Made by a program: the position numbers and the translations under genes. A DNA stretch of 64,000 bases, taken from Micromonospora echinaurantiaca (GTDB taxonomy: Bacteria; Actinomycetota; Actinomycetes; Mycobacteriales; Micromonosporaceae). The notes under the pieces were generated by a model that was not told the origin of the DNA, ran no database searches, and saw nothing but the letters and a program-made list of their open reading frames with translations. Of the stretch, positions 21,709-38,891 are shown one piece after another. Positions within the stretch are counted from its first letter, which is position 1. Each line of letters begins with the position of its first letter. Where the stretch lies: assembly GCF_900090235.1 (NCBI RefSeq), contig NZ_LT607750.1:2120501-2184500 (forward strand), written 5' to 3'.

Positions 21709-21709
21709 C

Positions 21710-22513: not shown

Positions 22514-23796
22514 GCATGAAACATCGCATCCTCGGCATCGTCTTCGTCGCCGTCCTGGCCGCGGCGCTGACCGGCTCCGTGCTGCAGTACCGCAAGGCGT
22601 TCACCCCGGTCGCCTGGGTCACCCTGCACGCCGACCGCGCCGGCCTGCAACTCGCCGACGGCGCCGACGTGAAGGTACGCGGCGTGCTGGTCGGCGACGT
22701 CCGCTCGGTACGCGGCGACGGCGACGGGGCCACCCTGCGGCTGGCCCTCGACCCGGCGACCACCGGCCGGATCCCGGCCGACGTCACCGCGCGCCTGCTG
22801 CCCAAGACGCTCTTCGGTGAACGCTACGTCGAACTCGTCCCGCCGACGGGCAGCACCGCCGGGCCGATCCGCGACGGCGCGGTCATCACCCAGGACCGCA
22901 GCCGCACCGCCGTGGAGCTGGAGCGGGTGCTCGACGAGGCGCTGCCGCTGTTGCAGGCGATCCGGCCCGACCAGCTGGCCACCACGCTGGGCGCGCTGGC
23001 CACCGCGCTGGAGGGCCGCGGCGAGCAGCTCGGCGCGAACCTGGCCCGGCTGGAGGCGTACCTCGAACGGCTCAACCCGGCCATGCCGGCCATCGCGGCG
23101 GACGTGCGCGCCCTGGCCGCGGTGCTGGACAGCTACGACGCCGCGCTGCCCGACCTGCTGGCGCTGCTGCGCGACGTCAGCGTCACCGCCCGCACGGTCA
23201 CCGACCAGCGCACCCAGCTGGCCGCGTTCCTCGCCGAGGCCACCGACGCCGCCGACGTCGCGCACGGCTTCCTCGACCGGCACGGCGACCAGCTCATCCG
23301 GCTCGGCGCGGTGAGCCGGCCGGTGCTCGAACTGCTCGCCACCTACGCGCCCGAGTACCCGTGCCTGATGAGCGGCCTGGTGGCCCTGCAACCCCGGGTG
23401 GAGGAGGTCTTCGCCGGCGGCCGGATGCGGATCACCCTGGAGGTCACCCGCGACGGCGGCAAGTACGAGCGTGGCCGCGACGAACCGGTCTACCGCGCCG
23501 ACGACGGCCCGCAGTGCCACGGCCTGCCCCGACCGGCCAGTCCCGCCCCGGAGAAGCCGATCGACGACGGCTACGACTACTCCGGCCCCCGGCCGCCGGT
23601 CACCCTGCCGGTCGGCCTGCCCGCCCCGGCCGCCGGCGCCTCCCCGGCCATGGGCCAGGCCGCCACCGGCCAGGAACGCGCCCTGGTGAAACCGCTGCTC
23701 GGCGCGGTCACCGGCACCCCGCCGGCGGAGGTGCCCGACATCGCGGTGCTGCTGTGGGGGCCGCTGCTGCGCGGAGCGGTGGTGAACGCCCGATGA
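22510..23796 (+). CDS. mceA: MceA-type lipid-transfer protein
   Basis: 428 residues from GTG 22510; ATG 22516 is an alternative. An N-terminal membrane anchor (ILGIVFVAVLAAALTGSVLQ) is followed by the MCE/MlaD barrel (about 35-115: VKVRGVLVGDVRSVRGDGDG, then LLPKTLFGERYVELVPP). A long helical region (about 135-300) and a disordered Pro/Gly tail rich in CHGLPRPA-like sequence follow. Six such proteins form the tube that carries hydrophobic substrate across the envelope. First of six; joined to mceB by ATGA. Confidence 0.92.
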   Translation: MSMKHRILGIVFVAVLAAALTGSVLQYRKAFTPVAWVTLHADRAGLQLADGADVKVRGVLVGDVRSVRGDGDGATLRLALDPATTGRIPADVTARLLPKTLFGERYVELVPPTGSTAGPIRDGAVITQDRSRTAVELERVLDEALPLLQAIRPDQLATTLGALATALEGRGEQLGANLARLEAYLERLNPAMPAIAADVRALAAVLDSYDAALPDLLALLRDVSVTARTVTDQRTQLAAFLAEATDAADVAHGFLDRHGDQLIRLGAVSRPVLELLATYAPEYPCLMSGLVALQPRVEEVFAGGRMRITLEVTRDGGKYERGRDEPVYRADDGPQCHGLPRPASPAPEKPIDDGYDYSGPRPPVTLPVGLPAPAAGASPAMGQAATGQERALVKPLLGAVTGTPPAEVPDIAVLLWGPLLRGAVVNAR

Positions 23797-24821
23797 CCGG
23801 CACCATCCGCCCGCTGGTGAAGCTGCTGGTCTTCGCCGCGGTGACGCTGCTGCTGACCGCGCTGCTCGCCCAGACCCTGGGCGCCTTCCCGGCCGGCGGC
23901 GTCAACTACCGGGCCCGGTTCACCGACGTCACCGGCCTGCTGCCCGGCGACGACGTGCGGATCGCCGGCGTCCGGGTCGGCCGGGTCGCCGACATCCGGG
24001 TCGTCGACGACACCGTGGCCGAGGTCGAGTTCACCCTCACCGAGGACGTCCCGCTGGCCACCGGCGTCCGCGCCGCCATCCGCTACCGCAACCTGGTCGG
24101 GCAGCGCTACCTCGCGCTCACCGAGGGGCCGGGGGAGCGCCGGCCGCTGCGGCCGGACGGGCTCATCCCGATCGGGCAGACCACCCCGGCGCTGGACCTG
24201 ACCGTGCTGTTCAACGGCTTCCGGCCGCTGTTCACCGCGCTGCGTCCGGAGGACGTCAACAAACTCGCCTACGAGATCATCCAGGTGCTCCAGGGCGAGG
24301 GCGGCACCGTGTCGAGCCTGCTGAGCCGGACCGCCTCGCTGACCAACACCCTCGCCGACCGGGACGCCGTCATCGGCCGCGTGGTCACCAACCTCAACAC
24401 CGTGCTGACCACCCTCGCCACCCGGGACCGGGACCTCGACCGGACCATCACCCAACTGCAGGAGTTCGTCTCCGGGCTGGCCGCCGACCGGACCGCCATC
24501 GGCGAGGCGCTGGTCAACCTTGGCGACCTCACCGAGGCGACCTCGTCGCTGGTGGGCGAGGCCCGGCCACCGCTCGCCGCCGACATCCGCGCCCTCGACG
24601 AGCTCGCCGGCACGCTCAACCGCAACTCCGCGGTCATCGACAGCACGCTCGGCCGGCTGCCGCAGCGCTACGAGTCGCTGACCCGGGTCGCCTCGTACGG
24701 CTCCTGGTTCAACTTCTACCTCTGCGACTTCGACGGCCGGGTGTCGGCCGCCGGCCAGACCCTGAACCCCGTCACCTTCAGCGCGCCGGCCGCGCGGTGC
24801 GCCACCGGAGGCAGCCGATGA
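23793..24821 (+). CDS. mceB: MceB-type lipid-transfer protein
   Basis: 342 residues; ATG overlaps the mceA stop. Anchor helix LLVFAAVTLLLTALLAQTLG, MCE domain with FTDVTGLLPGDDVRIAGVRV and YRNLVGQRYLALTEGPGE, then a helical domain (RTASLTNTLADRDAVIGRVV) made of heptad-like repeats. The C-terminus is short, with the conserved YGSWFNFYLCDFDGRV typical of MceB. No tail extension. Confidence 0.92.
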   Translation: MTGTIRPLVKLLVFAAVTLLLTALLAQTLGAFPAGGVNYRARFTDVTGLLPGDDVRIAGVRVGRVADIRVVDDTVAEVEFTLTEDVPLATGVRAAIRYRNLVGQRYLALTEGPGERRPLRPDGLIPIGQTTPALDLTVLFNGFRPLFTALRPEDVNKLAYEIIQVLQGEGGTVSSLLSRTASLTNTLADRDAVIGRVVTNLNTVLTTLATRDRDLDRTITQLQEFVSGLAADRTAIGEALVNLGDLTEATSSLVGEARPPLAADIRALDELAGTLNRNSAVIDSTLGRLPQRYESLTRVASYGSWFNFYLCDFDGRVSAAGQTLNPVTFSAPAARCATGGSR

Positions 24822-25798
24822 AACCGTTCCGCGAACGCAACCCCGTGGTCACCGGCGCCGTCGGGTTGACCCTGATCGTCGCCGCGCTGCTCGGCGCCTT
24901 CCAGCTCGACCGGCTCGCCGCGTTCACCGGCCGGGCCTACCAGGCGGCCTTCACCGACGCCAGCGGCCTCGCCGCCGGCAACGAGGTGCGGGTCGCCGGG
25001 GTCCGCGTCGGCAAGGTCACCGCCGTCGAACTCGCCCGCGACACCCGGTCGTACGTGCGGGTCCGGTTCCGGGTCGACGACGACGGCGTACGCCTGGGCG
25101 ACCGCACCGGCGCGACGATCCGGATCAAGACGGTGCTCGGGCAGAAGTACCTGGCCCTGGCGCCCGCCGGGGCGGGCCGGCTGCCGGAGGGCGGGCAGAT
25201 CCCGCTGGACCGCACCGCCGCCCCGTTCGACGTGGTCCAGGCGGTCACCGGGCTCGCCGACACCCTCGACAAGGTCGACACCGACCAGCTCGCCGCCGCC
25301 TTCGCCACCCTGTCGGAGACCTTCGCCGACACCCCCGCCAGCGTCGACTCCGCGCTGGGCGGGCTGGCCCGGCTCTCCCGCACCGTCGCCGACCGGGACG
25401 CCGAACTGCGGTCGCTGCTGACCCGGGCCCGCGAGGTCACCGACGTGCTGGCCACCCGCGACGAGGAGTTCCGCAAGCTGGTGACCGACGGCGAGGCGCT
25501 GCTGGCCGAGGTGACCCGCCGCCGGGACGCCATCCACAAGCTGCTGGTCGGCACCAACGACCTGGCCACCCAGTTGTCCGGACTGGTCGCCGACAACCGG
25601 ACCGAACTCGACCCGGCCCTGCGGGAGCTGCGGGAGGTGATCGCCGTGCTGCAACGCAACCGGGACAACCTGGAACGCAGCATCGCGCGGATGGCGCCGT
25701 TCGTCACCGCGTTCGCCAACGTGGTCGGCAACGGCCGCTGGTTCGACTCGTACGTGCACGGGCTGGTGCAGCCGTACGTGCCCACGGGTGGCCGGTGA
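24818..25798 (+). CDS. mceC: MceC-type lipid-transfer protein
   Basis: 326 residues; ATG 24818 follows GGAGGCAGCC and overlaps mceB (ATGA). Membrane anchor at residues 10-30 (VVTGAVGLTLIVAALLGAFQ), MCE domain with FTDASGLAAGNEVRVAGVRV and KTVLGQKYLALAPAG, then a helical stretch with regular Asp/Arg-rich turns (SRTVADRDAELRSLLTRARE). It ends with NVVGNGRWFDSYVHGLVQPY, a pattern shared with the MceB C-terminus. Confidence 0.92.
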   Translation: MKPFRERNPVVTGAVGLTLIVAALLGAFQLDRLAAFTGRAYQAAFTDASGLAAGNEVRVAGVRVGKVTAVELARDTRSYVRVRFRVDDDGVRLGDRTGATIRIKTVLGQKYLALAPAGAGRLPEGGQIPLDRTAAPFDVVQAVTGLADTLDKVDTDQLAAAFATLSETFADTPASVDSALGGLARLSRTVADRDAELRSLLTRAREVTDVLATRDEEFRKLVTDGEALLAEVTRRRDAIHKLLVGTNDLATQLSGLVADNRTELDPALRELREVIAVLQRNRDNLERSIARMAPFVTAFANVVGNGRWFDSYVHGLVQPYVPTGGR

Positions 25799-27042
25799 TG
25801 GCCGCCCACCGCTGGCGCCGGCCGGTCGCCGCCGCCACCGTCCTGCTCACCGCGCTGGCCGCCGCCGTGGTGGTCGCCCGGCACGAGCCGCCCCAGCGGC
25901 GGCTGACCGCCCACTTCACCCGGGCGGTCGGCGTACACCCCGGCTCCGACGTGCGGGTCCTCGGCGTCCGGGTCGGCGAGGTGGTGGCGGTGACCCCGCG
26001 CGGGCGCACCGTCGAGGTCGCCATGCGCTACGACCCGGGCGTGCAGATCCCGTCCGACGCGCAGGCGGTGATCGTCCCGCCCAGCGTGGTCAGCGACCGG
26101 TACGTCCAACTCACCCCCGCGTACGCCGGCGGCGCCCCGCTCGCCGACGGCGCCGAGATCCCGCTGACCCGCACCGCGGCGCCGATGGAGATCGACGACA
26201 TCTACCGGGCGCTGGACGACTTCAACCGGGCGCTCGGCCCGGATGGCGCGAACGCCGACGGCGCGCTGTCCGACCTCGTCGCCACCGGCCGGGCCAACCT
26301 GGAGGGCAACGGCGAGCAGCTGCGGGAGACCCTCGACGGGCTGTCCCGGGCGTTGACCACGCTCGCCGACGGCCGGCAGGACCTGTTCGGCTCGGTGGCC
26401 AACCTGCAACGGTTCACCACCACCCTGGCCGAGAGCGACCAGCAGGTGCGCGCCTTCCAGCGGCAGCTGGCCGACGTGGCCGAACAGCTCTCCGGCGAAC
26501 GCGACGAACTCTCCGCCGCGCTGCGCAGCCTGGCCGTCGCGCTGGCCGACGTCACCGCCTTCGTGAAGAAGAACCGCCAGCTGCTCACCGCCGACGTCGC
26601 CGCGCTCGCCGACATCACCGGGGTGCTGGTCCGCCAGCAGGAGGCGGTCATCGAGATCCTCGACGTGGCGCCGCTGGCACTGAACAACCTCGCGTTGGCG
26701 TACAACCCCCGGTCGGGCACCCTGGACACCCGCGACAACGCCACCGGCCCGTACGACCCGGCCGGCTTCGCCTGCTCGCTGATCGTCGACCAGCTGCCCG
26801 CGAAACAGGTCCCGGCCACCTGCCACGCGCTCGCGCAGACGCTGCACGCGCGCGGGCTGCCGATGACCGATCAGCTGCGCAAGCTGCTCAAGCTGCCGCC
26901 CGGCGCCCCGACGGCCGGCCCGGTCCCGCCGGGCGAACCTCCATCCACCCAGCCCGGTGGGCCGGCCCTCGACCTGGCGCCGGGCGGCCCCGTCGACACC
27001 CTGGACCGTACCCTCGGCGGCATCCTGCGAGGCCCGGCATGA
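25798..27042 (+). CDS. mceD: MceD-type lipid-transfer protein
   Basis: 414 residues from ATG 25798 (TGATG junction with mceC); GTG 25795 would add one residue. Anchor helix VAAATVLLTALAAAVVVA, MCE domain with HPGSDVRVLGVRVGEVVAVT and VVSDRYVQLTPAYAGG, then the helical domain (about 155-300). A C-terminal region with two Cys (FACSLIVDQLPA, ATCHALAQTL) and a Pro/Gly-rich tail follows. The Cys pair may form a disulfide outside the membrane. Confidence 0.9.
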   Translation: MAAHRWRRPVAAATVLLTALAAAVVVARHEPPQRRLTAHFTRAVGVHPGSDVRVLGVRVGEVVAVTPRGRTVEVAMRYDPGVQIPSDAQAVIVPPSVVSDRYVQLTPAYAGGAPLADGAEIPLTRTAAPMEIDDIYRALDDFNRALGPDGANADGALSDLVATGRANLEGNGEQLRETLDGLSRALTTLADGRQDLFGSVANLQRFTTTLAESDQQVRAFQRQLADVAEQLSGERDELSAALRSLAVALADVTAFVKKNRQLLTADVAALADITGVLVRQQEAVIEILDVAPLALNNLALAYNPRSGTLDTRDNATGPYDPAGFACSLIVDQLPAKQVPATCHALAQTLHARGLPMTDQLRKLLKLPPGAPTAGPVPPGEPPSTQPGGPALDLAPGGPVDTLDRTLGGILRGPA

Positions 27043-28442
27043 CCGCCCGGGCGCGCCGGCTGCTGGCCGCGGCCCTGGCCGTGGCGCTGCTGCCCGCCGG
27101 CTGCGGCCTGCCGGAGCTGACCGACCTGCCGCTGCCCGGCGGCGCGCCGGCCGGCCCCGGGTACCGGGTCACCGCCGAGTTCACCGACGTGCTCGACCTG
27201 GTGCCGCAGGCGGCCGTCAAGGTCGACGACGTCACGGTGGGCAGCGTCGAGAAGATCTCCCTCGCCGGCTGGACCGCCCGGGTCATCCTGCGGATCGACC
27301 GCGAGGTCCAGCTGCCCGCCAACGCCACCGCGGCGGTCCGGCAGAGCAGCCTGCTCGGCGAGAAGTACGTGACGGTCACCGCCCCGACCACCGAGCCGCG
27401 CCGCGGCCGGCTCGCCGACGGCGACGTCATCCCGCTGGCCCGCACCACGCGCGGCGCCGAGGTGGAGGAGGTGCTCGCCGCGCTGGGGCTGCTGCTCAAC
27501 GGCGGCGGCCTGGCCCAGCTGCGCACCATCGACCAGGAACTCGGCCGGGCGCTCGACGGCCGCGAACCCGCGATCCGCGACGCGTTGCACCGGCTCGACG
27601 AGTTCGTCGGCGGGCTGGAACGGCAGAAGGCGGACATCGTCCGGGCGGTCGAGGCGCTGGACCGGCTGACCGGCCGGCTCGCCCGGCAGCGGCAGGTCGT
27701 CGGCGAGGCCGTCGACGCGCTTGCCCCCGGGATGACCACGCTGGCCCGCCAGCGCGCCCAGCTGACCAGCGCGCTGACCGCCCTCGGCGAACTCGGGCGG
27801 GTCGGCACCCGGGTGGTCAACCGCAGCCGCGACGACACCCTGGCCAGCCTGCGGTCGCTGAAACCGATCCTCGAACAGCTGGTCCGTGCCGGGGACGACC
27901 TGCCGAAGTCACTGGACTTCATGCTGTCGTACCCGTTCCCGCCGAACGTGACCGGCGCGATCGTCGGCGACTTCGTCAACCTTTCCATCACCGCCGACCT
28001 GGACGCCGCCTCGATCCTGGCCAACCTGGTCGCCGCCGCCCCAGCGCCCGCCGGGTCGGCCACCGGCGGGCGGACGCCCGGCGCCGCACCCCCGCCCACG
28101 GCCGGCGGGTCCCGCCCGGGAGCCCGCCCCGACGGCTCCCTGCCGGACCTGCCGCTGCTGAAGTGCCTGCCGGACCTGACCAAGTTCCCGACGACCTGGA
28201 CGCCGCCGAAGGAGTGCCAGCTGCCGGAGGGCTGCCAGCTGCTCAAGCCCGGCTCCAAGGTGCCCGTCGGCGGGCTGATCCTGCCCAAGGGGATCGTGCC
28301 GCCCGGCACCGCCTTCCCCGCCGGCACGGAACTGCCCGCCGGCACGATCCTCTCCGCCGACTGCATCCTGCCGGTGACCGGCGCGATAACCGGCACGGTC
28401 GGCGGCCTGACCGACATCCTCGGAGGCGGGCTGCTGCCATGA
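27039..28442 (+). CDS. mceE: MceE-type lipid-transfer lipoprotein
   Basis: 467 residues; ATG overlaps the mceD stop. It is the lipoprotein of the set: lipobox LLPAGC with the lipidated Cys at residue 22. MCE domain FTDVLDLVPQAAVKVDDVTV, then RQSSLLGEKYVTVTAP; helical domain about 150-310; SLDFMLSYPFPPNVTGAIVG is the conserved MceE block. The C-terminal 100 residues are an unusual Pro/Leu/Lys region with clustered Cys (LLKCLPDLTKFPTTW, then CQLPEGCQLL), probably a disulfide-stabilised cap. Confidence 0.92.
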   Translation: MTARARRLLAAALAVALLPAGCGLPELTDLPLPGGAPAGPGYRVTAEFTDVLDLVPQAAVKVDDVTVGSVEKISLAGWTARVILRIDREVQLPANATAAVRQSSLLGEKYVTVTAPTTEPRRGRLADGDVIPLARTTRGAEVEEVLAALGLLLNGGGLAQLRTIDQELGRALDGREPAIRDALHRLDEFVGGLERQKADIVRAVEALDRLTGRLARQRQVVGEAVDALAPGMTTLARQRAQLTSALTALGELGRVGTRVVNRSRDDTLASLRSLKPILEQLVRAGDDLPKSLDFMLSYPFPPNVTGAIVGDFVNLSITADLDAASILANLVAAAPAPAGSATGGRTPGAAPPPTAGGSRPGARPDGSLPDLPLLKCLPDLTKFPTTWTPPKECQLPEGCQLLKPGSKVPVGGLILPKGIVPPGTAFPAGTELPAGTILSADCILPVTGAITGTVGGLTDILGGGLLP

Positions 28443-29686
28443 TCGGACGGACCGTGAAACTCCAGGTCATCGCCTTCGTACTGGTGAGCCTGCTCGGCGT
28501 CGGCTACGTCGGGGTGCGCTACGTCGGCCTCGGCGACCGGCTGCTCGGCGGCGGGTACGTGGTGCACGTCGACCTCGCCCGCGCCGGCGGCCTGTTCGCC
28601 AACGCCCCGGTCACCTACCGCGGGGTGCCCGTCGGCCGGGTCACCGCGGTCAATCTGCACGGCGACGGCGTCCGCGCCGACCTGCGGATCGACCGGGACG
28701 TCCGGGTGCCCGCCGAGCTGCGCGCGGTGGTGGCGCACCGCTCCGCCGTCGGCGAGCAGTACCTCGACCTGCGGCCGGACCGCGACGACGGCCCGTACCT
28801 GCGCGACGGGTCGGTGATCCCCGCCGACCGCACCGGCGTCCCGCTCGCCCCCGAGGTGCTGCTGTCCAACCTGGACGCGCTGGTCCGCTCGGTCGGCCCG
28901 GAGGACCTGGCAGTGCTGATCACCGAGCTGGGCACCGCGTTCCAGGGCAACGAGGCCGCGCTCGCCCGGATCCTCGACGCGGGGGACGCGCTGCTCACCG
29001 ACGCGACAGCGGCCCTGCCCGAGACCCTCGCCCTGATCCACGACGGGCGCACCGTGCTGACCACCCAGGCCGAGTCGGCGGAGGCGTTGCGGCGCTGGGC
29101 GCGCGGCCTGGCCGAGCTGGCCGCCACCGTTCGGGAAGCGGACCCCGACCTGCGGCGCGTCCTGGCCGCCGGCCCGCCCGCCGCGACCGAGACGATCGCG
29201 CTGCTGCGCGGCCTGGAGCCGACCATCGGCACCCTGCTCGGCAACCTGGTGACCGTCAACGGCATCGCCGCCCGGCGGCTGCCCGGCATCGAGCAGTTGC
29301 TCGTGGCGTACCCGATCGCGGTCGCCGGCGGCTTCACCGTCACCCCGGGCGACGGCACCGCCCACCTCGGCCTGGTGCTCAACGTCAACAACCCGCCGTC
29401 CTGCGTGTACCGGGGCGGCAGCCGGCAGTGCGGCCAGCAGGACCGGGCGGCCGGCGCCGGGGTGCGCGGCGCCCCGAACGCGCCCCGCCCGGGCGGGGCC
29501 GACCCGGCGCCCGCCACCGGCACCCCGCCCGCCGCTACGACCGGGATGGTCGGCTACGACCCGGCGACCGGGTTGGTGCTCGGCTCCGACGGGCGACCGT
29601 TGCAGTTCGGCGGGACCGGCGGCCAGTACCGGACGGCCGGTGACCAGTCGTGGAAGCAGTTGCTGCTCGCCGGGGTGACCCCGTGA
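28439..29686 (+). CDS. mceF: MceF-type lipid-transfer protein
   Basis: 415 residues; ATG overlaps mceE. Anchor helix LQVIAFVLVSLLGVGYVGVR, MCE domain LFANAPVTYRGVPVGRVTAV and HRSAVGEQYLDLRPD, then helices to about 300. The C-terminal block (LVLNVNNPPSCVYRGGSRQC) has the paired Cys and the YDPATGLVLGSDG motif usual for MceF. It closes the set of six Mce proteins. Confidence 0.92.
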   Translation: MIGRTVKLQVIAFVLVSLLGVGYVGVRYVGLGDRLLGGGYVVHVDLARAGGLFANAPVTYRGVPVGRVTAVNLHGDGVRADLRIDRDVRVPAELRAVVAHRSAVGEQYLDLRPDRDDGPYLRDGSVIPADRTGVPLAPEVLLSNLDALVRSVGPEDLAVLITELGTAFQGNEAALARILDAGDALLTDATAALPETLALIHDGRTVLTTQAESAEALRRWARGLAELAATVREADPDLRRVLAAGPPAATETIALLRGLEPTIGTLLGNLVTVNGIAARRLPGIEQLLVAYPIAVAGGFTVTPGDGTAHLGLVLNVNNPPSCVYRGGSRQCGQQDRAAGAGVRGAPNAPRPGGADPAPATGTPPAATTGMVGYDPATGLVLGSDGRPLQFGGTGGQYRTAGDQSWKQLLLAGVTP

Positions 29687-31058: not shown

Positions 31059-31154
31059 CTGTTGCCGGCGCCGGCATCCCGGCCCGGCGGGACCGGACTG
31101 TCGCCGCCGGCTCGACTAGGCTTTGCGCACGGGCGACGGTGGCGGGAGGCGACC

Positions 31155-31469
31155 GTGGGCAGGGAGAGCTGGCTCGACGTGGATCCGGCGGGCCTGGCGG
31201 GCCTGGCGGACCGGATGACCGGTGTCGCGGAGCGCCTGGCGGCGGTCGAGTGGCCCGACAGCGGCGATTTGCCCGCGACGGCGGGTCCGGACGGCCGGCC
31301 GCTGCGCGACGCGGCCACGCGCTGGCTGGACGAGCTGCCCCGCACCGCCAGCGAGCTGCGCGAACTCGCCGGCATCGTCCGACAGGTCGCGGGTTCCGTG
31401 CGGACGGTGGACGAGGAGATGGCAGCCCAACTGACCCGCCTGCTCCGGGACGTCTCCGATGGCCGGTGA
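31155..31469 (+). CDS. Small helical protein, EspC/type VII substrate-like
   Basis: 104 residues from GTG 31155 with GGGAGG upstream; a TAGGCT -10 lies at 31117. Two long amphipathic helices, DPAGLAGLADRMTGVAERLA and TASELRELAGIVRQVAGSVR, are separated by a Gly/Asp/Pro turn and end in a charged tail (DEEMAAQLTRLLRDVSDGR). This hairpin layout with an N-terminal D-P-x-x-L lead resembles EspC-like ESX substrates. The next gene overlaps it by 11 bases. Together they face the caspase-EccC gene and could be its cargo or regulators. The match is by layout only. Confidence 0.6.
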   Translation: MGRESWLDVDPAGLAGLADRMTGVAERLAAVEWPDSGDLPATAGPDGRPLRDAATRWLDELPRTASELRELAGIVRQVAGSVRTVDEEMAAQLTRLLRDVSDGR

Positions 31470-31944
31470 CCCGCACCGGCGGCTGGCCGTCGCCGGCACC
31501 GACGCGGTCGACCGGTGGGCGGACGCGGCACGGGCCGCCGGGCAGGCCGCGGACGAGCTCCATCGGGTGCACCGTGACCTGCCCGCGCACTGGCGCGCGG
31601 GGGTCGGGCTCGACAACGTCGATGAGACGCTGCGCCGCCTGGTCCGGCGCCTGGAGGACGCCCACGACACCTACCGAGCCGTCGCCGAAGCGCTGGCGAT
31701 CCGGGACCGGGAGGTGGCCCGGGCCGAACAGCTGATCAGCCGGACGGTGGCCGAGGCGCACCAGCTGGGGCTCGTCGTCACGCCGGACGGCGAGGTCGTT
31801 CCGCCGGCCGCCGGCGCCGCGCCGATGGCGGTGCGGGCGCTCGCCCGGCGGCTCTCCGCCGCGCTCGCCGAGGCGATGGCCCACGCCGACGCGGCGCGGG
31901 CCCGCGCCGCCGACGTCCTCGCCGCGCTGGCGGCGTCCCGCTGA
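31459..31944 (+). CDS. Helical WXG100-like hypothetical protein
   Basis: 161 residues from ATG 31459, inside the end of the preceding gene. It is almost entirely helical: DAVDRWADAARAAGQAADEL, a turn with AHWRAGVGLDN, then ETLRRLVRRLEDAHDTYRAV and AEALAIRDREVARAEQLISR. The W-R-A-G turn between helices resembles the W-x-G turn of ESX proteins, though the protein is longer than the usual 100 residues. A second helical hairpin fills the C-terminus (AVRALARRLSAALAEAMAHA). It is convergent with the caspase-EccC gene, 29 bases away. Function unknown. Confidence 0.55.
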   Translation: MAGDPHRRLAVAGTDAVDRWADAARAAGQAADELHRVHRDLPAHWRAGVGLDNVDETLRRLVRRLEDAHDTYRAVAEALAIRDREVARAEQLISRTVAEAHQLGLVVTPDGEVVPPAAGAAPMAVRALARRLSAALAEAMAHADAARARAADVLAALAASR

Positions 31945-31973: not shown

Positions 31974-34900
31974 TCAGGACTCGGCGAGGGCGGTCTGGAT
32001 GAGCCGGGCACCGTCGCGGCGGCGTACCAGCGTGCCACGACCGGGTGGCATCGGCTGCGGCCGGAGGTTGCCCAGCACCTGCCCCTCCTCGCGGTGGCCC
32101 GACATCAGCAGCCCGGGTGAATCCAGTTCGCGCAGCCGCTGGAGCACCGGCTCGTAGAGCGCCCGGGCGAGGCCGCCGACCCGGCGGGCGAGGATCAGGT
32201 GCAGACCGATGTCGCGGGCCTGGGGCAGCAGATCGTGCAGCACGCTGAGCGGGTTGTTGCCCGCCGACGCCACCAGGTCGTAGTCGTCCACCAGGATGAA
32301 CAGTTCCGGCCCCCGCCACCAGCTACGGGTCCGTAGCTGCTCCGTCGTGACGTCCGGGCCGGGCAGCCGGTTCGTCATGGCCTCCCGGATCGAGGCGAGC
32401 GCCTGGGCGAAGCCCTGGTTGGACGGTGCGTACTCGAGGAGGTGCTCGGCGGGCACGGCGCCGAGCAGGCTGCGGCGGTAGTCGGCGACCACCAGCCGGG
32501 CCTCGGCCGGCGTGCGGCGTGCCACCAGCTGTTGGGCGACCAGCCGGAGCAGGTTGCTCTTGCCGCACTCCGCGTCGCCGAACACGGTCAGGTGCGGGTC
32601 GCTGTCCAGGTCGAGGTAGACCGGCGCGAGCGAGGCCTCGTCGACGCCGATCGGCAGGCCCGCGGCGGACGGGTCGCTCACCTCGTTCAACTCCGCCCGG
32701 GTGAGGCGGCGCGGCAGCATCCGCACCGGCGGTGCGGACCGGCCCGGCCAGGCCTCGGCGACCTGGTCCGCCAGCGTGGCCGTCGCCTCGGCCAGGTCGT
32801 CGACGCTGTGCTTGCCGTCGAGGCGGGACAGGGCGGTGAGGAAGTGCAGCCGATCCCGGGTCAGGCCGCGGCCCGGCGCCGCCTCCGGGACGTTCGCCGC
32901 GATCCGCCGGTTGAACTCCGACTCGCTGGGATCACCGAGCCGCAGCTCCAGCTTGGTGCCGAGCAGGTCGCGCATGCTGAGCCGCAGCTCCGACCAGCGG
33001 ATGGCGGTGAGCACCACGTGCACGCCGTACTGGAGCCCGCGCTGGGCGAGGAGCGTGACGGTCTCCTCGAGCTCGGCGTACTCCAGGCGCAGGATGTTCC
33101 AGCCGTCCACGACGAGGAACACGTCGCCGAACGGGTCGTCGGGGAACTCGCCGGCCGCGCGCCGCTGGCGGTAGCTGGCCATGGACTCGACACCCTGCTC
33201 GGCGAAGCGGGCCTCCCGCCCGTCGAGCAGCGCCAACACCTCGGCGACCGTGCGGCGCACCGCCTCGGTGTCGCGGCGGCCGGCCACCCCGGAGACGTGC
33301 GGCAGCGCCGCGAGGCTGCGCAGCGCGCCGCCGCCGAAGTCGAGGCAGAAGAACTGCACCTCGCGCGGGGTGTGGGTCAGCGCCAGCGAGGCGATCAGCG
33401 AGCGCAGCATGGTGCTCTTGCCGCTGAGCGAGGCGCCGACGACGGCCACGTTGCCGCCGGCCCCGGCGAGGTCGACCAGCAACGGGTCGCGGCGCTGCTC
33501 GTACGGCCGGTCGACGAGGCCGACCGGCGCGGTCAGCGACCCGGCGCCGACGGTCGAGGTGAGGCCGCGGGCGGGCTTGCGGGTCAGCGGCAGCAGCTCG
33601 TCCAGGGTGGGCGGCTCGGCCAGCGGCGGCAGCCAGATCTGGTGCGCGGGCGGCCCGCCGTCGCGCAACTGGTGCACCACGACGTGGAGCAGGCTGCGAC
33701 CGGCGAGTTCCGGGGGCACGGTCGCGCCGGCGTCGACGCCGGTGAGGGCCGGCGGACCGGAGACGTACGTGGCCCGGAACCGGGTCATCGCGGCGCCCGT
33801 CTTCAGGTAGCCGTGGCCGGGGGCGTTGGGCAGCTCGTACGCGTCCGGCACGCCGAGCACGGTGCGGCTCTCGAACGCGGAGAAGGTACGCAGGCCGATC
33901 CGGTACGACAGGTGGGTGTCCAGCCCGCGCAGCCGCCCCTCCTCCAGCCGCTGGGTGGCCAGCAGCAGGTGCACGCCGAGCGACCGGCCCAGCCGGCCGA
34001 TCATCACGAAGAGATCGATGAAGTCGGGTTGCGCGGCGAGCAGCTCGCTGAACTCGTCACAGATGATCAGCAGGCTGGGTAGCGGCGCCAGCGGCGCCCC
34101 GGCGTCCCGGGCCCGCTCGTAGTCGAGCCGGGAGACGTAGTTGCCGGCCGTCCGCAGCAGCTCCTGCCGCCGGACCAGCTCGCCGGCGAGCGCCTCGCGC
34201 GTCCGCTCGACCAGGGGGAGCTGGTCGGCGAGGTTGGTGATGACCGCGCTGGTGTGCGGCAGTCCCTCCAGCGAACTGAAGGTGGCGCCGCCCTTGAAGT
34301 CGATCAGGACGAGGTTGAGGTCGGCCGACGAGTGTCGCGCCGCGAGCGCCACGACGATCGTACGGAGCAGCTCGCTCTTGCCCGAGCCGGTCGCGCCGAC
34401 GAGCAGCCCGTGCGGCCCCATCCCGTCCTGCGCCGACTCCTTCAGGTCGAGCAGCACCGGCGCCCCGCCATCGTCGACGCCGATCGGCACCCGCAGGTAG
34501 TCCGGTCCGAGCGGGGTCCGGTGCCCCGCGAAGCTCCACAACGCGGCGTAGTCCGGGATGCCGAGGACGGCCAACGGCTCGTCCAGCGCCCTGGTCGTGT
34601 CGGGGCGAGCGTCGATCCGGCCGGCGTCGACCCGGGGCATGCCCCAGGCCTCCGCGATCACCGACACCATCGCCCGGGCCCCGCCCGTCGGCCGACCTTC
34701 GGTCTCGATCTCCGTCTCCGGATCGGTCCCGCTGACCGTGAGGTCGGGCAGCGCCACCCGGAAGGTGCGCCGGCCGTAGAGGGCCCAGCCCGGCACGTTC
34801 ATCGGCAGGCGGGCGGCCTGGTCCGGGTTGACCCGCGACTCGTGCGGCTGCGACAGCCGGGTCTCGATCCGGGCCTGGGGCAGCTCCAGCAACTCCTCCG

Positions 34901-36320
34901 GGATGACCCGCCAGCTGCGTTCGAGCACCACGACGTGCAGCCCGTAGCCCAGCCCCTTGTTCGCGAGGTCCACCACCCGGGGGGCGAAGTCGGGCAACAG
35001 CGTCGCGAAGTCCTGCCACCGGTCGACGACCAGGAACACGTCCGGATAGGGGTTGGCCTCGACGCCGGCCCGCCAGGCCCGCAGGCTGGCCGGCGACTCC
35101 AGCTCGTGCCGCCGGAACAGCTGCTTGCGGTCGAGGACCTCCTGTTCCAGCAGGTCGAGCAGCGCGCGCACCGCACCGACCTCGTCGTCGCCGACCACCG
35201 CGCGGACGTGCGGCAGCCGCCGCATCGGCCCGAGCAGGTTTCCGCCCGACTCCAGGCAGTAGAAGGCGACCTCCCGGTCGGAGTGGGTGAGCGCCAGCCC
35301 GGCGATGAGGGAGCACAACAGCGTGGTCTTGCCGGTGCCGGTCCGGCCGACGAGCAGCAGGTGCCCCTCCGCGGCGGCCAGGTCGAGCCAGACCAGCTCA
35401 CCGGCCGGCTGGTCGATCCGCTGCGCCTGACCGATCGGCACCTTCAGCAGCCCTCGTCGCCGCCAGTCGGTGGCGCAGAGCTTCACGTCGCCACCGGGTT
35501 CCAGCGGACCCAGCAGGTCGCCGAGCCGCGGTTCGCGTTGGTCCCGCCGGCGCCGCTGGCGGTGGTGCCCCTCCCGGGACAGCGCGATGTGCACCTCGTC
35601 GCTGGCCTGCCCGAACTGGCACGGTGACTGGGAGGAGGTCCGCTTCGGCAGTTCCAGCCGGACGTACCGCCACAGGTCGTCCGGGGTGATGCGGCCCTGC
35701 CCGGTGATGTCGGCCGCGCCGGTGCTCAGGCCCTGGATGATCGTCTCGGTGAAGGCCGAGCGCAGCCGCGACGTGGTCTCCGAGGCCGGCCGGCCGTCGT
35801 CGGCCCGCTCCACCGAGTTGGTAGCGGTGATGACGTAGCGGCCGTAGCCGGTGCGCAGCTCGCCGTCGATGGCCAGGTCGTCGGTCGTCTTCAGGCCGTG
35901 CCCCTCGAACGCGCCGCTGTAACAGCAGTCCAGCAGGATCACGGAGCTGGCGGCGTCCGACTCGTCGAGTAGTTCCCGGACGAAGGACGCGGACACCGCC
36001 GTCGAGGAGAGGTGGTCCACCTCGGTGTTGGCGACCGCCAGGTAGAGCCGGCCCCGTTTGCTGCTGCGCACCCCGTGGCCGGAGAAGTAGAGCAGGACCA
36101 GGTCCTCCGGCCCGGCCGCCCGGAGCATCGACTCGATCGCCCGCTCGATCGAGCTCTTCGACTCGTTCTCCAGCAGCATGGTCTGGTCGAAGGCGCCGAC
36201 GTCCGCGTCGGCCAGCAGGCTCAGCAGGTCACGCGCCTCTTCCCGCGGTGCGTAGAGGTCCGTCAACGACTCGTCGATGTAGCGGTCGTTGGCGATCAGC
36301 AGGGCGCGGCGCTCTCCCAC
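31974..36320 (-). CDS. Caspase-like protease fused to four EccC/FtsK-type P-loop modules
   Basis: 1448 residues from GTG 36320. Residues 1-250 form a caspase (C14) domain with the His/Cys dyad visible: H82 in LLYFSGHGVRS and C133 in ILLDCCYSGAF. Four P-loop modules follow: Walker A at 325-332 (GRTGTGKT), 642-649 (GATGSGKS), 962-969 (GASLSGKS) and 1248-1255 (GDAECGKS). Only the second has a full FtsK/SpoIIIE set (LIDFKGGATF, LLIICDEFSEL with the catalytic Glu, LLATQRLEEG), as in EccC domain 1; the Walker B lines of modules 1 and 3 (FLVVDRW, FLVVDGW) lack the Glu. No membrane helix is seen, unlike true EccC, whose N-terminal membrane part seems replaced by the protease. The EACC1-like gene lies three bases upstream. 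Probably a soluble, ATP-gated protease effector. Confidence 0.9.
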   Translation of the reverse strand: MGERRALLIANDRYIDESLTDLYAPREEARDLLSLLADADVGAFDQTMLLENESKSSIERAIESMLRAAGPEDLVLLYFSGHGVRSSKRGRLYLAVANTEVDHLSSTAVSASFVRELLDESDAASSVILLDCCYSGAFEGHGLKTTDDLAIDGELRTGYGRYVITATNSVERADDGRPASETTSRLRSAFTETIIQGLSTGAADITGQGRITPDDLWRYVRLELPKRTSSQSPCQFGQASDEVHIALSREGHHRQRRRRDQREPRLGDLLGPLEPGGDVKLCATDWRRRGLLKVPIGQAQRIDQPAGELVWLDLAAAEGHLLLVGRTGTGKTTLLCSLIAGLALTHSDREVAFYCLESGGNLLGPMRRLPHVRAVVGDDEVGAVRALLDLLEQEVLDRKQLFRRHELESPASLRAWRAGVEANPYPDVFLVVDRWQDFATLLPDFAPRVVDLANKGLGYGLHVVVLERSWRVIPEELLELPQARIETRLSQPHESRVNPDQAARLPMNVPGWALYGRRTFRVALPDLTVSGTDPETEIETEGRPTGGARAMVSVIAEAWGMPRVDAGRIDARPDTTRALDEPLAVLGIPDYAALWSFAGHRTPLGPDYLRVPIGVDDGGAPVLLDLKESAQDGMGPHGLLVGATGSGKSELLRTIVVALAARHSSADLNLVLIDFKGGATFSSLEGLPHTSAVITNLADQLPLVERTREALAGELVRRQELLRTAGNYVSRLDYERARDAGAPLAPLPSLLIICDEFSELLAAQPDFIDLFVMIGRLGRSLGVHLLLATQRLEEGRLRGLDTHLSYRIGLRTFSAFESRTVLGVPDAYELPNAPGHGYLKTGAAMTRFRATYVSGPPALTGVDAGATVPPELAGRSLLHVVVHQLRDGGPPAHQIWLPPLAEPPTLDELLPLTRKPARGLTSTVGAGSLTAPVGLVDRPYEQRRDPLLVDLAGAGGNVAVVGASLSGKSTMLRSLIASLALTHTPREVQFFCLDFGGGALRSLAALPHVSGVAGRRDTEAVRRTVAEVLALLDGREARFAEQGVESMASYRQRRAAGEFPDDPFGDVFLVVDGWNILRLEYAELEETVTLLAQRGLQYGVHVVLTAIRWSELRLSMRDLLGTKLELRLGDPSESEFNRRIAANVPEAAPGRGLTRDRLHFLTALSRLDGKHSVDDLAEATATLADQVAEAWPGRSAPPVRMLPRRLTRAELNEVSDPSAAGLPIGVDEASLAPVYLDLDSDPHLTVFGDAECGKSNLLRLVAQQLVARRTPAEARLVVADYRRSLLGAVPAEHLLEYAPSNQGFAQALASIREAMTNRLPGPDVTTEQLRTRSWWRGPELFILVDDYDLVASAGNNPLSVLHDLLPQARDIGLHLILARRVGGLARALYEPVLQRLRELDSPGLLMSGHREEGQVLGNLRPQPMPPGRGTLVRRRDGARLIQTALAES

Positions 36321-36323
36321 GGG

Positions 36324-36800
36324 TCAGCTCCCGGCGCCGCCGCCACCGTGCTGACCGGCCACCGGCCGTCGCTCCGGCTGGGCCGGAAGCTCGGCGGTGC
36401 CCGCCTGGGCCGGAAGCTCGGCGGTGCCCGCCGGTGTGCCGCCGATGAGCTGCGTCAGCTCGGTGACGAGGCGCGCGTCGACCCGGGTCGACCCGGTGAT
36501 CACCAGCTCGTTGTCGCCGCTGCGCAGCGTGATCGACCGGGCCTTGACCCGGTCGGCGTAGGCGACGGCGACGTACGCGAGGGCGCGCAGGCTCGCGGCC
36601 GAGAAGAGGCCGCCCACCGCCAGCATCCCCAGCTCCCACGCCTGCTGCGACTTGCCGTGCCCGTCGGCCGCCGACTGGGCGTGCGCGATCCGCAGCCCCG
36701 GCACCGTACGCAGGTCGTCCGCCAGTTGGCCGGCGAGCCCGTCCACCCGCTCGGCGGGCGTCGACGGTCGCGGTTGGATCGACAGCAGCAGCTCGGTCAC
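36324..36800 (-). CDS. EACC1-like effector-associated constant component
   Basis: 158 residues; GTG 36800 has GGAGG six bases upstream. The first 120 residues match the small EACC1 family as I recall it: a Pro-containing first strand (LLLSIQPRPS), DDLRTVPGLRIAHAQS, a Gly/Ala/Leu helix that replaces the usual membrane-like segment (WELGMLAVGGLFSAASLRAL), and the strand pair ARSITLRSGDNELVITGSTR. EACC1 proteins occur next to caspase, trypsin or other effectors in actinobacterial NTP-dependent conflict systems. The tail has AGTAELPAQ twice. It is cotranscribed with and precedes the caspase-EccC gene, consistent with a sensor or adaptor for it. Confidence 0.72.
   Translation of the reverse strand: MTELLLSIQPRPSTPAERVDGLAGQLADDLRTVPGLRIAHAQSAADGHGKSQQAWELGMLAVGGLFSAASLRALAYVAVAYADRVKARSITLRSGDNELVITGSTRVDARLVTELTQLIGGTPAGTAELPAQAGTAELPAQPERRPVAGQHGGGGAGS
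36378..36431. repeat. Tandem 27-bp duplication in the EACC1-like gene
   Basis: Positions 36378-36404 and 36405-36431 are identical, adding nine residues (AGTAELPAQ) a second time to the C-terminal tail. Confidence 0.85.
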
Positions 36801-37064: not shown

Positions 37065-37525
37065 GGGCGGCGTGCGCGGAGCCGGCGCAGCGCGTACACC
37101 GCGCCGCTGGCCAGGAACAGGACGCCGGTGGCCAGCAGCCAGCGGCCCAGGAAGGGCTGCTGGTCCTGGCCGGTCGCGGCGCGGTAGGTCGGCCCGCCCT
37201 GCCGGAGGATGCCGGGCAGGTAGACGAGGAACAGCAGCCCGGCGGCCAGCGCCGGCACCCGGATGTGGTTCACCAGCGAAGGCCCGGCCGCCGGCGGGCG
37301 GACGGCTGCTCGCAGGGCCCGGTCGGCCAGCGCGTAGACCGGGAAGAGCACCAGGTCGTGGGCGATCGCCGCGCCGACGAACCAGACCAGCATGGCCCCG
37401 GCGGTCGGCTCCCCGGCGAGCCGCAGCGCCACCCATCCGGTGACCGCGAAGGCGATCGCCATCAGCAGCAGGTGCCGCGCCCCGGCGCCGTACGCCGCGC
37501 GGAGCCGGGAGCGCAGCTCAGCCAT
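37061..37525 (-). CDS. Four-helix integral membrane protein of unknown function
   Basis: 154 residues from ATG 37525, overlapping the end of the molybdoenzyme gene by eight bases; GTG 37531 is an alternative. Four hydrophobic segments are clear: LLLMAIAFAVTGWVALRLAG, AMLVWFVGAAIAHDLVLFPV, VPALAAGLLFLVYLPGILRQ and LGRWLLATGVLFLASGAVYA. AIAHDLVLFPVY resembles a recurring motif of small actinobacterial membrane proteins but gives no function. Its overlap with the cytochrome b / sulfite-oxidase fusion suggests a membrane partner of that enzyme. A basic C-terminus (RRLRARRP) probably faces the cytoplasm. Confidence 0.75.
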   Translation of the reverse strand: MAELRSRLRAAYGAGARHLLLMAIAFAVTGWVALRLAGEPTAGAMLVWFVGAAIAHDLVLFPVYALADRALRAAVRPPAAGPSLVNHIRVPALAAGLLFLVYLPGILRQGGPTYRAATGQDQQPFLGRWLLATGVLFLASGAVYALRRLRARRP

Positions 37526-38891
37526 CGCCACGCGTCCGGAACTCGATCTCGCTGACCCACTTCGTGCAGTGCACGCCGGGCAGCGCGGGGACGATGATCC
37601 GCGCCGGGAAGCCGTGGTCGGGGGAGAGGTCCGCCCCGTTGACGGTCAGCGCGAGCAGCGAGTCGCCGTCGAGCACCTGGTTGGCCTGCAGCGTCGCCTG
37701 GTTGAACAGCCCGGCCCGCTCCAGCGAGCGGACGTGCGCCGAGTTGAGGTCGCCCGCCCCGGCGAGCGCGGCGAGGTCGCGCAGCCGGACGCCGGTCCAG
37801 GTCTGCAGGGTGGACCAGCCCTCCACGCAGGCGATCGGCAGCCGGGCGGTGTGCTGGGGCAGGGCCAGCAACGCCGCGCGGTCCAGGGCGACCGTCCGCC
37901 CGCCGGCCCGCAGCGTCACCCGCCACCCTTCGCCGGTGTCGTCGTCCCGGACGCCGGCGGCGGCAGCGGTGCGGTTGACCGGGAAGCCGTTCGGTCCGCC
38001 ACCGGGCTCGCGGCCGCGGGGCAGCAGCAGGGCCGTGCGACGCCACGCCCCGTCCAGACTCTGCCCGACGGTGAGTGCGCCCAGCAGCAGGGACAGCCCG
38101 CCGACCAGGGCGAGGGCGCCGCGCCGGCTGATCGTCGCCGCCCCGGGGTGGACGGGCACCAGAGCGTCCGGGTCCGGCGGCTCGGGGCGGGTGCCGGCCC
38201 GCGGGGTGGCCAGCTCGCGGCGGGGCGGGCGGGACCGCAGCGCGGAGACCAGCCGCGGCAGCTTCAAGCCCACGTGCGCGACCAGCGCCGCGGTGAACAC
38301 CCAGGCGCCGTAGTAGTGCGCGGTGTAGAAGTCGAACCCGAACAGGTACGCGTACTGGATGTTCAGCAGCCCGGTGGCGAACTGGAACAGGATGCCGCCG
38401 ACCAGCAGGAGCAGCGACAGTCGCTCCAGCACCTGCGCGACCGAGCGGGCCGGCGGCCAGTCGAACAGCTTCGGGATGACCGACCAGAGCTTCGCCAGCA
38501 CCACCGGGACCAGCATGATGCCGAGCGTCACGTGCAGCCCCTGGGTGAGCCGGAACAGCCAGGACGGGCGGGTCGGCCAGTCGAACGGCGGTAGCCGCAG
38601 CCAGCCCACGTCGCGGGGGAACGCCTGACCGAACTGCGGGCTGTAGGCGGCGTGGTCGAGCAGCCCGGTGACGATCAGCAACGGCAGGGTGACCAGCAAT
38701 ACCGCCCCGAACACGCTGGTCAGCCAGGGGCCGCGCAGCGGGCTGCGCCAGCGGCCGGCCACCGTCGCGGCGCCTGGTGGGGAATGCCGCGCCAGGAACC
38801 GCCACCACCGCCGGGGAAAGCCGTACGCCGCCCGGTCGGGCTCCGGCGTGACCGGGGCGCCGCCGGGCGGGGAACCGCTGTCGGTGCTCAC
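37518..38891 (-). CDS. Fused cytochrome b561-like / sulfite-oxidase-type molybdopterin protein
   Basis: 457 residues from GTG 38891. Residues 50-215 contain four membrane helices with heme-ligand candidates H80, H120, H192 and H206, as in b-type cytochromes of the Ni/Fe-hydrogenase/formate group. A fifth helix preceded by SRRGAL (about 256-278) leads to the outer domain, a sulfite-oxidase/YedY-like molybdopterin fold (about 300-457) with the molybdenum-ligand C355 in IACVEGWS and the downstream SPDHGFPARIIVPALPGVHC, then KWV. It combines in one chain what YedYZ (MsrPQ) does in two: electrons from the membrane heme to an extracytoplasmic molybdenum site, perhaps to repair oxidised sulfur. Substrate not known. 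Confidence 0.85.
   Translation of the reverse strand: MSTDSGSPPGGAPVTPEPDRAAYGFPRRWWRFLARHSPPGAATVAGRWRSPLRGPWLTSVFGAVLLVTLPLLIVTGLLDHAAYSPQFGQAFPRDVGWLRLPPFDWPTRPSWLFRLTQGLHVTLGIMLVPVVLAKLWSVIPKLFDWPPARSVAQVLERLSLLLLVGGILFQFATGLLNIQYAYLFGFDFYTAHYYGAWVFTAALVAHVGLKLPRLVSALRSRPPRRELATPRAGTRPEPPDPDALVPVHPGAATISRRGALALVGGLSLLLGALTVGQSLDGAWRRTALLLPRGREPGGGPNGFPVNRTAAAAGVRDDDTGEGWRVTLRAGGRTVALDRAALLALPQHTARLPIACVEGWSTLQTWTGVRLRDLAALAGAGDLNSAHVRSLERAGLFNQATLQANQVLDGDSLLALTVNGADLSPDHGFPARIIVPALPGVHCTKWVSEIEFRTRGDG

What the first reader, a model, noticed from the sequence alone, without database searches (positions are those of the whole stretch)
31974..36320. Caspase-like protease fused to an EccC-type secretion ATPase, apparently soluble
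Seen: a C14 dyad (H82, C133) in residues 1-250 followed by FtsK/EccC-type P-loop modules in one chain, with no membrane helix where canonical EccC has two. Known: EccC is the membrane motor of type VII secretion; bacterial caspases act as effectors in conflict and cell-death systems. Inference: the secretion motor has been repurposed as an ATP-driven sensor or oligomerisation platform that gates a suicide or processing protease.
Basis: partly seen in the sequence, partly recalled or inferred. Interest (0 to 1): 0.9.

Follow-up and report, generated by a model that had tools for sequence, protein, structure and literature searches.

The report
Caspase fused to secretion-motor ATPase domains
A soil bacterium carries a caspase-type protease built onto motor domains of a protein-secretion machine, with a dedicated partner gene and, in some relatives, a pair of small secretion-substrate-like proteins that may switch it on or off; it is a new variant of a predicted bacterial defence or cell-death system.

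Summary
In detail: window 31974-36320, MINUS strand, is one intact 1448-codon gene with an N-terminal caspase (H82/C133), EccC-type ATPase modules and no predicted membrane helix. It is a family: the 120 best database hits align with it (some partial; named ones are actinomycetes, mostly called "EccCb"), and 24 of 160 genomes of the genus have it. Order: caspase - M0 (extra D2-like module) - D1 - D2 - D3. An EACC1 gene lies three bases upstream (also in 24 of 24 further loci), so this is a form of the EACC1-caspase system predicted by Kaur et al. 2020, whose text names no EccC version. Caspase-M0 has one origin; D1-D3 comes from each lineage's own EccC. New here: a convergent pair of small EspC/WXG100-like genes (31062-31944) lies next to the fusion in the window and 9 of 22 other Micromonospora loci; its second gene occurs in 11 of 160 genomes, all with the fusion (p 8e-11). 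Fusions with the pair keep the canonical substrate pocket better (0.95 against 0.74). I infer an EccC-derived platform, bound by its WXG100-like pair, that gates an arginine-cutting paracaspase. No function has been tested. It fails membership of EccC.

The parts
36324..36800 (-). EACC1-type gene, 158 aa; ends 3 bases before the fusion starts
   Evidence: its Micromonospora family matches EACC1 proteins upstream of other caspases, hhalign 95.4%, E 1.7e-8; PF19953 hits 7 of 15 of the joint set but not this member; adjacent upstream in 24 of 24 further loci
31974..36320 (-). Caspase-M0-D1-D2-D3 fusion gene, 1448 aa, GTG start
35601..36320 (-). Caspase (C14, MALT1-like) domain, residues 1-240; H82 at 36075-36077, C133 at 35922-35924
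35535..35582 (-). Arg-rich linker after the caspase, residues 247-262; candidate self-cleavage region
   Evidence: Arg in columns 247-252 in 116 of 121 members. Cleavage is inferred
34620..35453 (-). M0, extra FtsK-type module, residues 290-567, closest to D2
   Evidence: 38% identity to D2, 30% to D1; M0 on one side of a branch from D2; fold matches EccCb1 D2 9jv8, TMt 0.85
33750..34523 (-). D1, EccC ATPase domain 1, residues 600-857, intact Walker A and B
32781..33548 (-). D2, EccC ATPase domain 2, residues 925-1180
31977..32708 (-). D3, EccC ATPase domain 3, residues 1205-1448, with the substrate-pocket positions
31459..31944 (+). Small helical WXG100-like gene, 161 aa, convergent, ends 29 bases from the fusion's stop
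   Evidence: PF25547 WXG100_2 in 6 of 9 relatives, best E 1e-5, window member 19 bits under the cut-off of 27; found in 11 of 160 genomes, all with the fusion
31062..31469 (+). EspC-like small gene, up to 135 aa (start uncertain), overlapping the WXG100-like gene
   Evidence: PF10824 EspC in 5 of 9 relatives, best E 0.0025, below cut-off; beside the previous gene at 9 other loci

Best explanation
This is an EACC1-caspase conflict system whose variable C-terminal half is an EccC-derived ATPase array. Shown: the EACC1 pair, the intact caspase dyad, four intact ATP-binding loops, loss of the membrane and DUF parts, one origin of caspase-M0, lineage-specific origin of D1-D3, and a strict link in Micromonospora to a convergent pair of small EspC/WXG100-like genes. 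Inferred: the EccC part works in the cytosol as an ATP-binding, oligomerising platform. Its D3 pocket binds the WXG100-like pair as EccC binds EsxB, and this binding, together with EACC1, sets whether the chains assemble. On assembly neighbouring paracaspase domains activate by proximity, cut after arginines behind the caspase, and the freed protease cleaves cell proteins, leading to dormancy or death of an invaded or damaged cell. Whether the pair triggers or restrains assembly is open. Copies without the pair would use another ligand.
For: NF047832 above cut-off; EACC1 gene 3 bases upstream and adjacent in 24 of 24 further loci. The 2020 paper describes this two-gene plan. Pair: in the window and 9 of 22 other Micromonospora loci, 35-147 bases (match edge) beyond the fusion's stop and convergent; the 161-aa gene in 11 of 160 genomes, all 11 among the 24 with the fusion, Fisher p 8e-11. 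Pocket identity to canonical 0.95 with the pair (n 10), 0.74 without (n 12). Paracaspase traits: MALT1 fold; D131 in 120 of 121 and acidic residue 28 in 98 of 121, positions that I recall as MALT1's S1 pocket; Arg-rich linker. Walker A in four modules; D1 Glu in 114, R543- and R616-equivalents (roles recalled) in 120 of 121. Purifying selection, omega 0.21-0.36.
Against: No activity, ligand or phenotype tested. WXG100/EspC likeness rests on matches that for the window members are below curated cut-offs. The pocket effect is weak once background is removed: D1-D3 as a whole is more canonical with the pair (D3 without pocket 0.83 against 0.74); residual p 0.07; 138 of 5000 random ten-position sets do as well; six of the ten pair bearers are one clade. 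Outside that clade the pocket differs (p 0.03) and D3 does not (p 0.67), but on four sequences with the pair. Thirteen of 22 other Micromonospora loci lack the pair, one of them the broken copy, and none was found beside the G107 and G249 copies. EssC oligomerises without substrate (PMC4925161, passages). EACC1's model shows no clear membrane helix, against the published membrane-sensor role. An Arg follows the caspase also in eight shorter caspase proteins, so it is not special to EccC.
Confidence: 0.5

Rival explanations
1. Effector-release model (Kaur et al. 2020 applied here): the EACC1-triggered caspase cuts itself off, and the freed M0-D1-D2-D3 ATPase is the payload, for instance jamming the resident type VII secretion motor by co-assembly or by soaking up its substrates.
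For: The paper proposes effector deployment by autoproteolysis. Arg behind the caspase in 116 of 121. D1-D3 comes from the resident lineage's EccC. Weaker constraint on D1-D3 than on the caspase. In the window protein 9 of 10 pocket residues equal those of the first canonical EccC of the genome.
Against: Within Micromonospora fused D1-D3 copies differ far more (67-71% mean identity) than canonical ones (90-96%), odd for a subunit that must fit one conserved partner. A dedicated WXG100-like pair is not expected for a plain payload. No cleavage shown.
Confidence: 0.25
2. Integrated decoy: D1-D3 is bait that imitates the resident secretion motor, and an invader's protein or foreign WXG100 substrate that binds EccC trips the caspase.
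For: Lineage-specific capture of D1-D3 while caspase-M0 is inherited as one unit; loss of motor constraint on D1 with ATP sites kept.
Against: No foreign ligand known; recombination between long similar stretches could give the pattern without selection; where the WXG100-like pair exists a partner encoded at the locus is the simpler ligand.
Confidence: 0.12
3. A working part of a type VII secretion system: a soluble motor that processes and exports the EspC/WXG100-like pair.
For: D1-D3 scores far above the EccC cut-offs; public names say EccCb; the pair resembles type VII substrates.
Against: No membrane helices or DUF domain; nearest EccB 1.3 Mb away, nearest WXG100 hit above cut-off 1.9 Mb away; D1 constraint reduced; only 24 of 160 genomes; two canonical EccC genes elsewhere.
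Confidence: 0.04
4. Artefact: misassembly, frameshift or a chance fusion.
For: None for the window; one relative (L009/L128) is broken early in its own frame.
Against: Uniform frame; same architecture in the aligned family and in 24 of 160 genomes.
Confidence: 0.01

Closest known systems
EACC1 two-gene conflict system (System 4 of Kaur et al. 2020, eLife 9:e52696, PMC7159879)
   Same: 5' EACC1 gene, 3' gene with N-terminal caspase and variable C-terminal half, actinomycete hosts
   Different: The text speaks of up to 50 C-terminal domain types and lists several, but no EccC or FtsK array for this system (figures and supplements not seen); no WXG100-like third and fourth gene is described in section 33
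EccC, motor of the actinobacterial type VII secretion system (T. curvata 4nh0/4n1a, M. tuberculosis EccC5/EccCb1)
   Same: D1-D2-D3 order, ATP sites; median identity 75-80% per domain to 71 canonical copies, mostly Micromonospora; small EspC/WXG100-like genes nearby
   Different: No membrane helices, no DUF domain, a caspase and an extra D2-like module instead, no EccB or canonical WXG100 gene in the window
MALT1 paracaspase
   Same: Caspase fold (TMt 0.74), LLDxC motif, acidic residue two before the catalytic Cys; activation on an oligomeric scaffold (recalled)
   Different: Eukaryotic; scaffold is a filament, not an ATPase array (recalled); sequence match weak (E 0.0016)
Bacterial caspase homologs with NACHT or other P-loop domains
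   Same: Protease joined to a P-loop ATPase; NACHT with metacaspase in 15 sequences in the 2012 survey (PMC3501461, passages)
   Different: There the ATPase is a NACHT-type switch; here it is a translocase-type FtsK/EccC array

Membership tests
EACC1-caspase two-gene system | 5' gene encoding EACC1 | tested here: met
   hhalign 95.4%, E 1.7e-8; PF19953 hits 7 of 15 of the joint set, best E 2.9e-5, but not the window member; adjacent in 24 of 24 further loci
EACC1-caspase two-gene system | 3' gene with N-terminal caspase of the EACC1-associated type | tested here: met
   NF047832 168 bits, cut-off 140
EACC1-caspase two-gene system | EACC1 has one conserved membrane helix with small residues in the middle | tested here: inconclusive
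   VGG patch present, hydropathy peak 1.56, but AlphaFold2 models strand plus helix (mean pLDDT 79)
EACC1-caspase two-gene system | Conflict or defence function | not testable with these tools
   Prediction in the 2020 paper only
Type VII secretion motor EccC | Three FtsK/SpoIIIE ATPase domains D1-D3 | tested here: met
   TIGR03924 and TIGR03925 above cut-off
Type VII secretion motor EccC | Two N-terminal membrane helices and DUF domain | tested here: not met
   No hydropathy peak reaching 1.6; TIGR03924 best stretch starts at model position 383 of 673
Type VII secretion motor EccC | Encoded in an esx locus with WXG100 and EccB | tested here: not met
   WXG100 (PF06013) hits above cut-off at 4.05 and 6.78-6.95 Mb, EccB at 3.48 and 6.94 Mb, fusion at 2.15 Mb; the adjacent pair is only WXG100-like, window members below cut-offs
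WXG100/EspC type VII substrates (for the pair 31062-31944) | Match to WXG100 or EspC profiles | tested here: inconclusive
   PF25547 6 of 9 relatives (best 1e-5), PF06013 3 of 9 (best 0.046), PF10824 5 of 9 (best 0.0025); window members below cut-off
Caspase/paracaspase (C14) | His-Cys dyad in a caspase fold | tested here: met
Caspase/paracaspase (C14) | Proteolysis after Arg | not testable with these tools
   Only inferred from D131, residue 28 and the Arg-rich linker

The most novel reading that the evidence does not exclude
A bacterial inflammasome-like device built from a secretion motor: an ancient caspase-M0 cassette captured the D1-D3 array of each lineage's own EccC, lost export, and now uses the motor's substrate pocket as a receptor for a dedicated WXG100-like pair; loss, capture or arrival of that ligand assembles the ATPase and fires an arginine-specific paracaspase.
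Probability: 0.24. Interest if true: 0.9.

Novelty: new variant of a known kind. Interest (0 to 1): 0.65.

Why it matters
If the EccC part gates the protease, a translocase-type ATPase array, rather than a NACHT-type switch, would be the scaffold of a bacterial caspase, and the substrate pocket of a secretion motor would have become a receptor. The four-gene form (EACC1, fusion, EspC-like, WXG100-like) gives a direct binding test. It also bears on annotation: many proteins now called EccCb in Micromonospora, Nocardia and Streptomyces are unlikely to be secretion motors.

Tried and rejected
Within-genus replacement of D1-D3 by the local EccC: the 119-row tree put Micromonospora P0029/P0031 beside a canonical EccC and Nocardia P0060/65/69/72 with Nocardia canonical copies, while the caspase-M0 tree kept them inside the fusions. 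On D2 alone, however, the window's D2 sits with canonical Micromonospora D2 (97/96*) and P0060's with a Nocardia one (98/93*). I leave it unresolved and keep only the between-lineage result. The groups in the AU tests were named after one search had been seen.

Neighbours: (E 1e-8) I first wrote that nothing but EACC1 recurs generally and that the weak WXG100/EspC hits of 31062-31944 were coincidence at the end of an Mce operon. For that reason I raised the platform reading from 0.45 to 0.50, lowered payload (0.30 to 0.25) and decoy (0.15 to 0.12), and raised the novel case (0.17 to 0.24) and the interest (0.58 to 0.65).

Same-substrate sensor in general: 27 of 33 Micromonospora fusions differ from the commonest canonical pocket. 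EACC1 fold search gave nothing under E 0.001. Promoter and terminator scans empty. PADLOC gave FtsK/HerA-type models (best mad8, E 1.2e-80) and a caspase model (E 7e-11) among 16 families for the fusion, none for EACC1; I did not take these as a known system.

Full report
WHAT IS THERE. Window 31974-36320, minus strand, is one 1448-codon gene with a uniform coding signature. Profiles give a caspase at 4-235 and EccC-type domains at 568-1444; FtsK_SpoIIIE matches four stretches. The genome is 7.20 Mb in one contig. The nearest protein, 99% identical over residues 1-560, is named Micromonospora echinaurantiaca, so I call the genus Micromonospora.

ARCHITECTURE. Caspase 1-240; Arg-rich linker; M0 290-567; D1 600-857; D2 925-1180; D3 1205-1448. 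M0 is closest to D2 (38%; D1 30%). A model of residues 1-600 (mean pLDDT 84.7) matches T. curvata EccC, M. tuberculosis EccCb1 D2 and MALT1. Canonical EccC has two membrane helices and a DUF domain (PMC6954902, passages); I found neither here.

CATALYTIC STATE. Over 121 proteins (the window's and the best 120 of 523 hits) H82, C132 and C133 are present in 120, with one gap; the Walker lysine is present in 121 (M0), 117 (D1, plus three Arg), 117 (D2) and 114 (D3). D1 Walker B has Asp in 108 and Glu in 114 of 121. Positions equivalent to R543, E593 and R616 of T. curvata EccC (numbers and roles recalled; paper not held) are kept in 120, 114 and 120. D131 is kept in 120 and residue 28 is acidic in 98 of 121; by the MALT1 alignment these fall where I recall its S1 pocket. 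Arg occurs in columns 247-252 in 116 of 121; of 1155 six-column windows without a fixed Arg seven reach that share, this one and two overlapping it included, though 159 of all 1411 windows do. Eight shorter caspase proteins (476-661 aa; EACC1-like ORF upstream in seven) all show at least one Arg there, six show two or more. Self-cleavage is inferred.

EACC1. The gene 36324-36800 ends three bases before the fusion. It has no Pfam hit of its own, but its family matches EACC1 proteins upstream of other caspases (hhalign 95.4%, E 1.7e-8); PF19953 hits 7 of 15 of the joint set. It is adjacent upstream, same strand, in 24 of 24 further loci: 22 of the genus, G107 and G249; an EACC1-like ORF also precedes the L055 copy. 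Kaur et al. 2020 (passages and section 33) define this as System 4 and suggest EACC1 as membrane sensor and the C-terminal part as effector freed by autoproteolysis. The passages mention FtsK only for other systems; figures and supplements were not seen.

THE WXG100-LIKE PAIR. Two small overlapping genes, 31062-31469 and 31459-31944 (plus strand), run towards the fusion's end. Homologues lie there, convergent, 35-147 bases from the fusion's stop to the match edge, in 9 of 22 other loci of the genus (L131, L135, L143-L149), without the window's Mce genes in the four such loci searched for them (L010-L012, L014). The 161-aa gene is found in 11 of 160 genomes, all among the 24 with the fusion (Fisher 8e-11); in the eleventh, G430, it lies on another contig and the fusion's contig ends at once. 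The protein database gave eight relatives, seven named, all Micromonospora. Profile likeness is remote: WXG100_2 in 6 of 9, WXG100 in 3 of 9, EspC in 5 of 9, window members below cut-off. Presence needs at least four changes on the fusion tree, so it is gained and lost or exchanged. No such gene was found beside the G107 and G249 copies.

DISTRIBUTION. 24 of 160 genomes of the genus hold residues 1-560 at E 1e-100 or better, one with a stop inside. Of 394 genomes drawn across the class 20 match at E 1e-40, but only three (own, G107, G249) over most of the query. Named hits include Nocardia, Streptomyces, Plantactinospora, Dactylosporangium, Kibdelosporangium, Saccharomonospora and Actinokineospora.

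EVOLUTION. D1, D2, D3 of the window protein have median identity 79.7, 76.6, 75.3% to 71 canonical copies (mostly Micromonospora), 77.0, 71.4, 72.8% to other Micromonospora fusions and 65.7, 54.1, 48.0% to other fusions; caspase and M0 are closest to Micromonospora fusions (86.3, 74.1%). So caspase-M0 arose once and D1-D3 is lineage-specific; finer exchange is unresolved. Omega: caspase 0.21, M0 0.31, D1 0.34, D2 0.36, D3 0.36 in ten Micromonospora fusions; 0.06, 0.16, 0.11 for D1-D3 of ten canonical copies (45 pairs each). The species sets differ and dS is higher for fusions (medians 0.52-0.63 against 0.31-0.37).

POCKET. Ten D3 positions that hold EsxB in M. tuberculosis EccCb1 (PMC6954902, sections 7 and 8) were mapped by alignment; the remark there that two of them are Ala in T. 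curvata agrees. The window and its genome's first canonical EccC share 9 of 10; the second differs more. Over 33 Micromonospora fusions pocket identity is 0.66 (D3 0.708), over 47 canonical copies 0.975 (D3 0.923). Split by the pair, identity to the canonical consensus is 0.95 (n 10) against 0.74 (n 12), p 0.0007; but D1, D2 and the rest of D3 are also more canonical (0.81-0.83 against 0.69-0.74), the residual effect is p 0.07, and 138 of 5000 random ten-position sets do as well. Leaving out a six-member clade the pocket still differs (p 0.03) and the rest of D3 does not (p 0.67). These tests ignore relatedness.

MECHANISM. I favour an EccC-derived cytosolic platform, bound by the WXG100-like pair where present, gating a paracaspase (0.50). 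Payload 0.25, decoy 0.12. A secretion role is unlikely: no membrane part; nearest EccB 1.3 Mb and nearest WXG100 hit above cut-off 1.9 Mb away (a sub-threshold one lies 0.24 Mb away); two canonical EccC genes elsewhere.

IN PRINT. Ten searches listed no paper whose title or abstract start described a caspase-EccC fusion; the 2012 survey of prokaryotic caspases (PMC3501461) does not hold the words FtsK or SpoIIIE. The pair was not searched in print. Most subscription papers are not held.

Noticed in passing
L127:1064-5822 (own genome, G000:C1:1237563-1242321): The same genome has a second EACC1 domain (PF19953, E 5.7e-9) directly before a 1427-aa TPR-S plus CHAT protein, i.e. EACC1 beside a different caspase-fold protease family (CHAT as caspase fold is recalled).
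   Followed up: partly
L009:8001-12320 (same as L128): The Micromonospora sicca copy has a stop after 52 codons in the frame of its start; broken gene or sequencing error. Left as it is.
   Followed up: no
window 20794-29686 (+): Mce-type operon (two MlaE permeases, several MlaD/Mce4_CUP1 proteins) just upstream of the WXG100-like pair in the window; not found at the four other pair loci searched.
   Followed up: partly
P0205 (protein search): An 1818-aa protein has FHA domains beside an EccC-type ATPase part and no caspase match.
   Followed up: no
window 37518-38891 (-): Molybdopterin oxidoreductase domain upstream on the same strand; probably unrelated.
   Followed up: no
window 36324-36800 (-): The EACC1 C-terminus carries two copies of a GTAELPAQ repeat and its tail is poorly conserved.
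   Followed up: no
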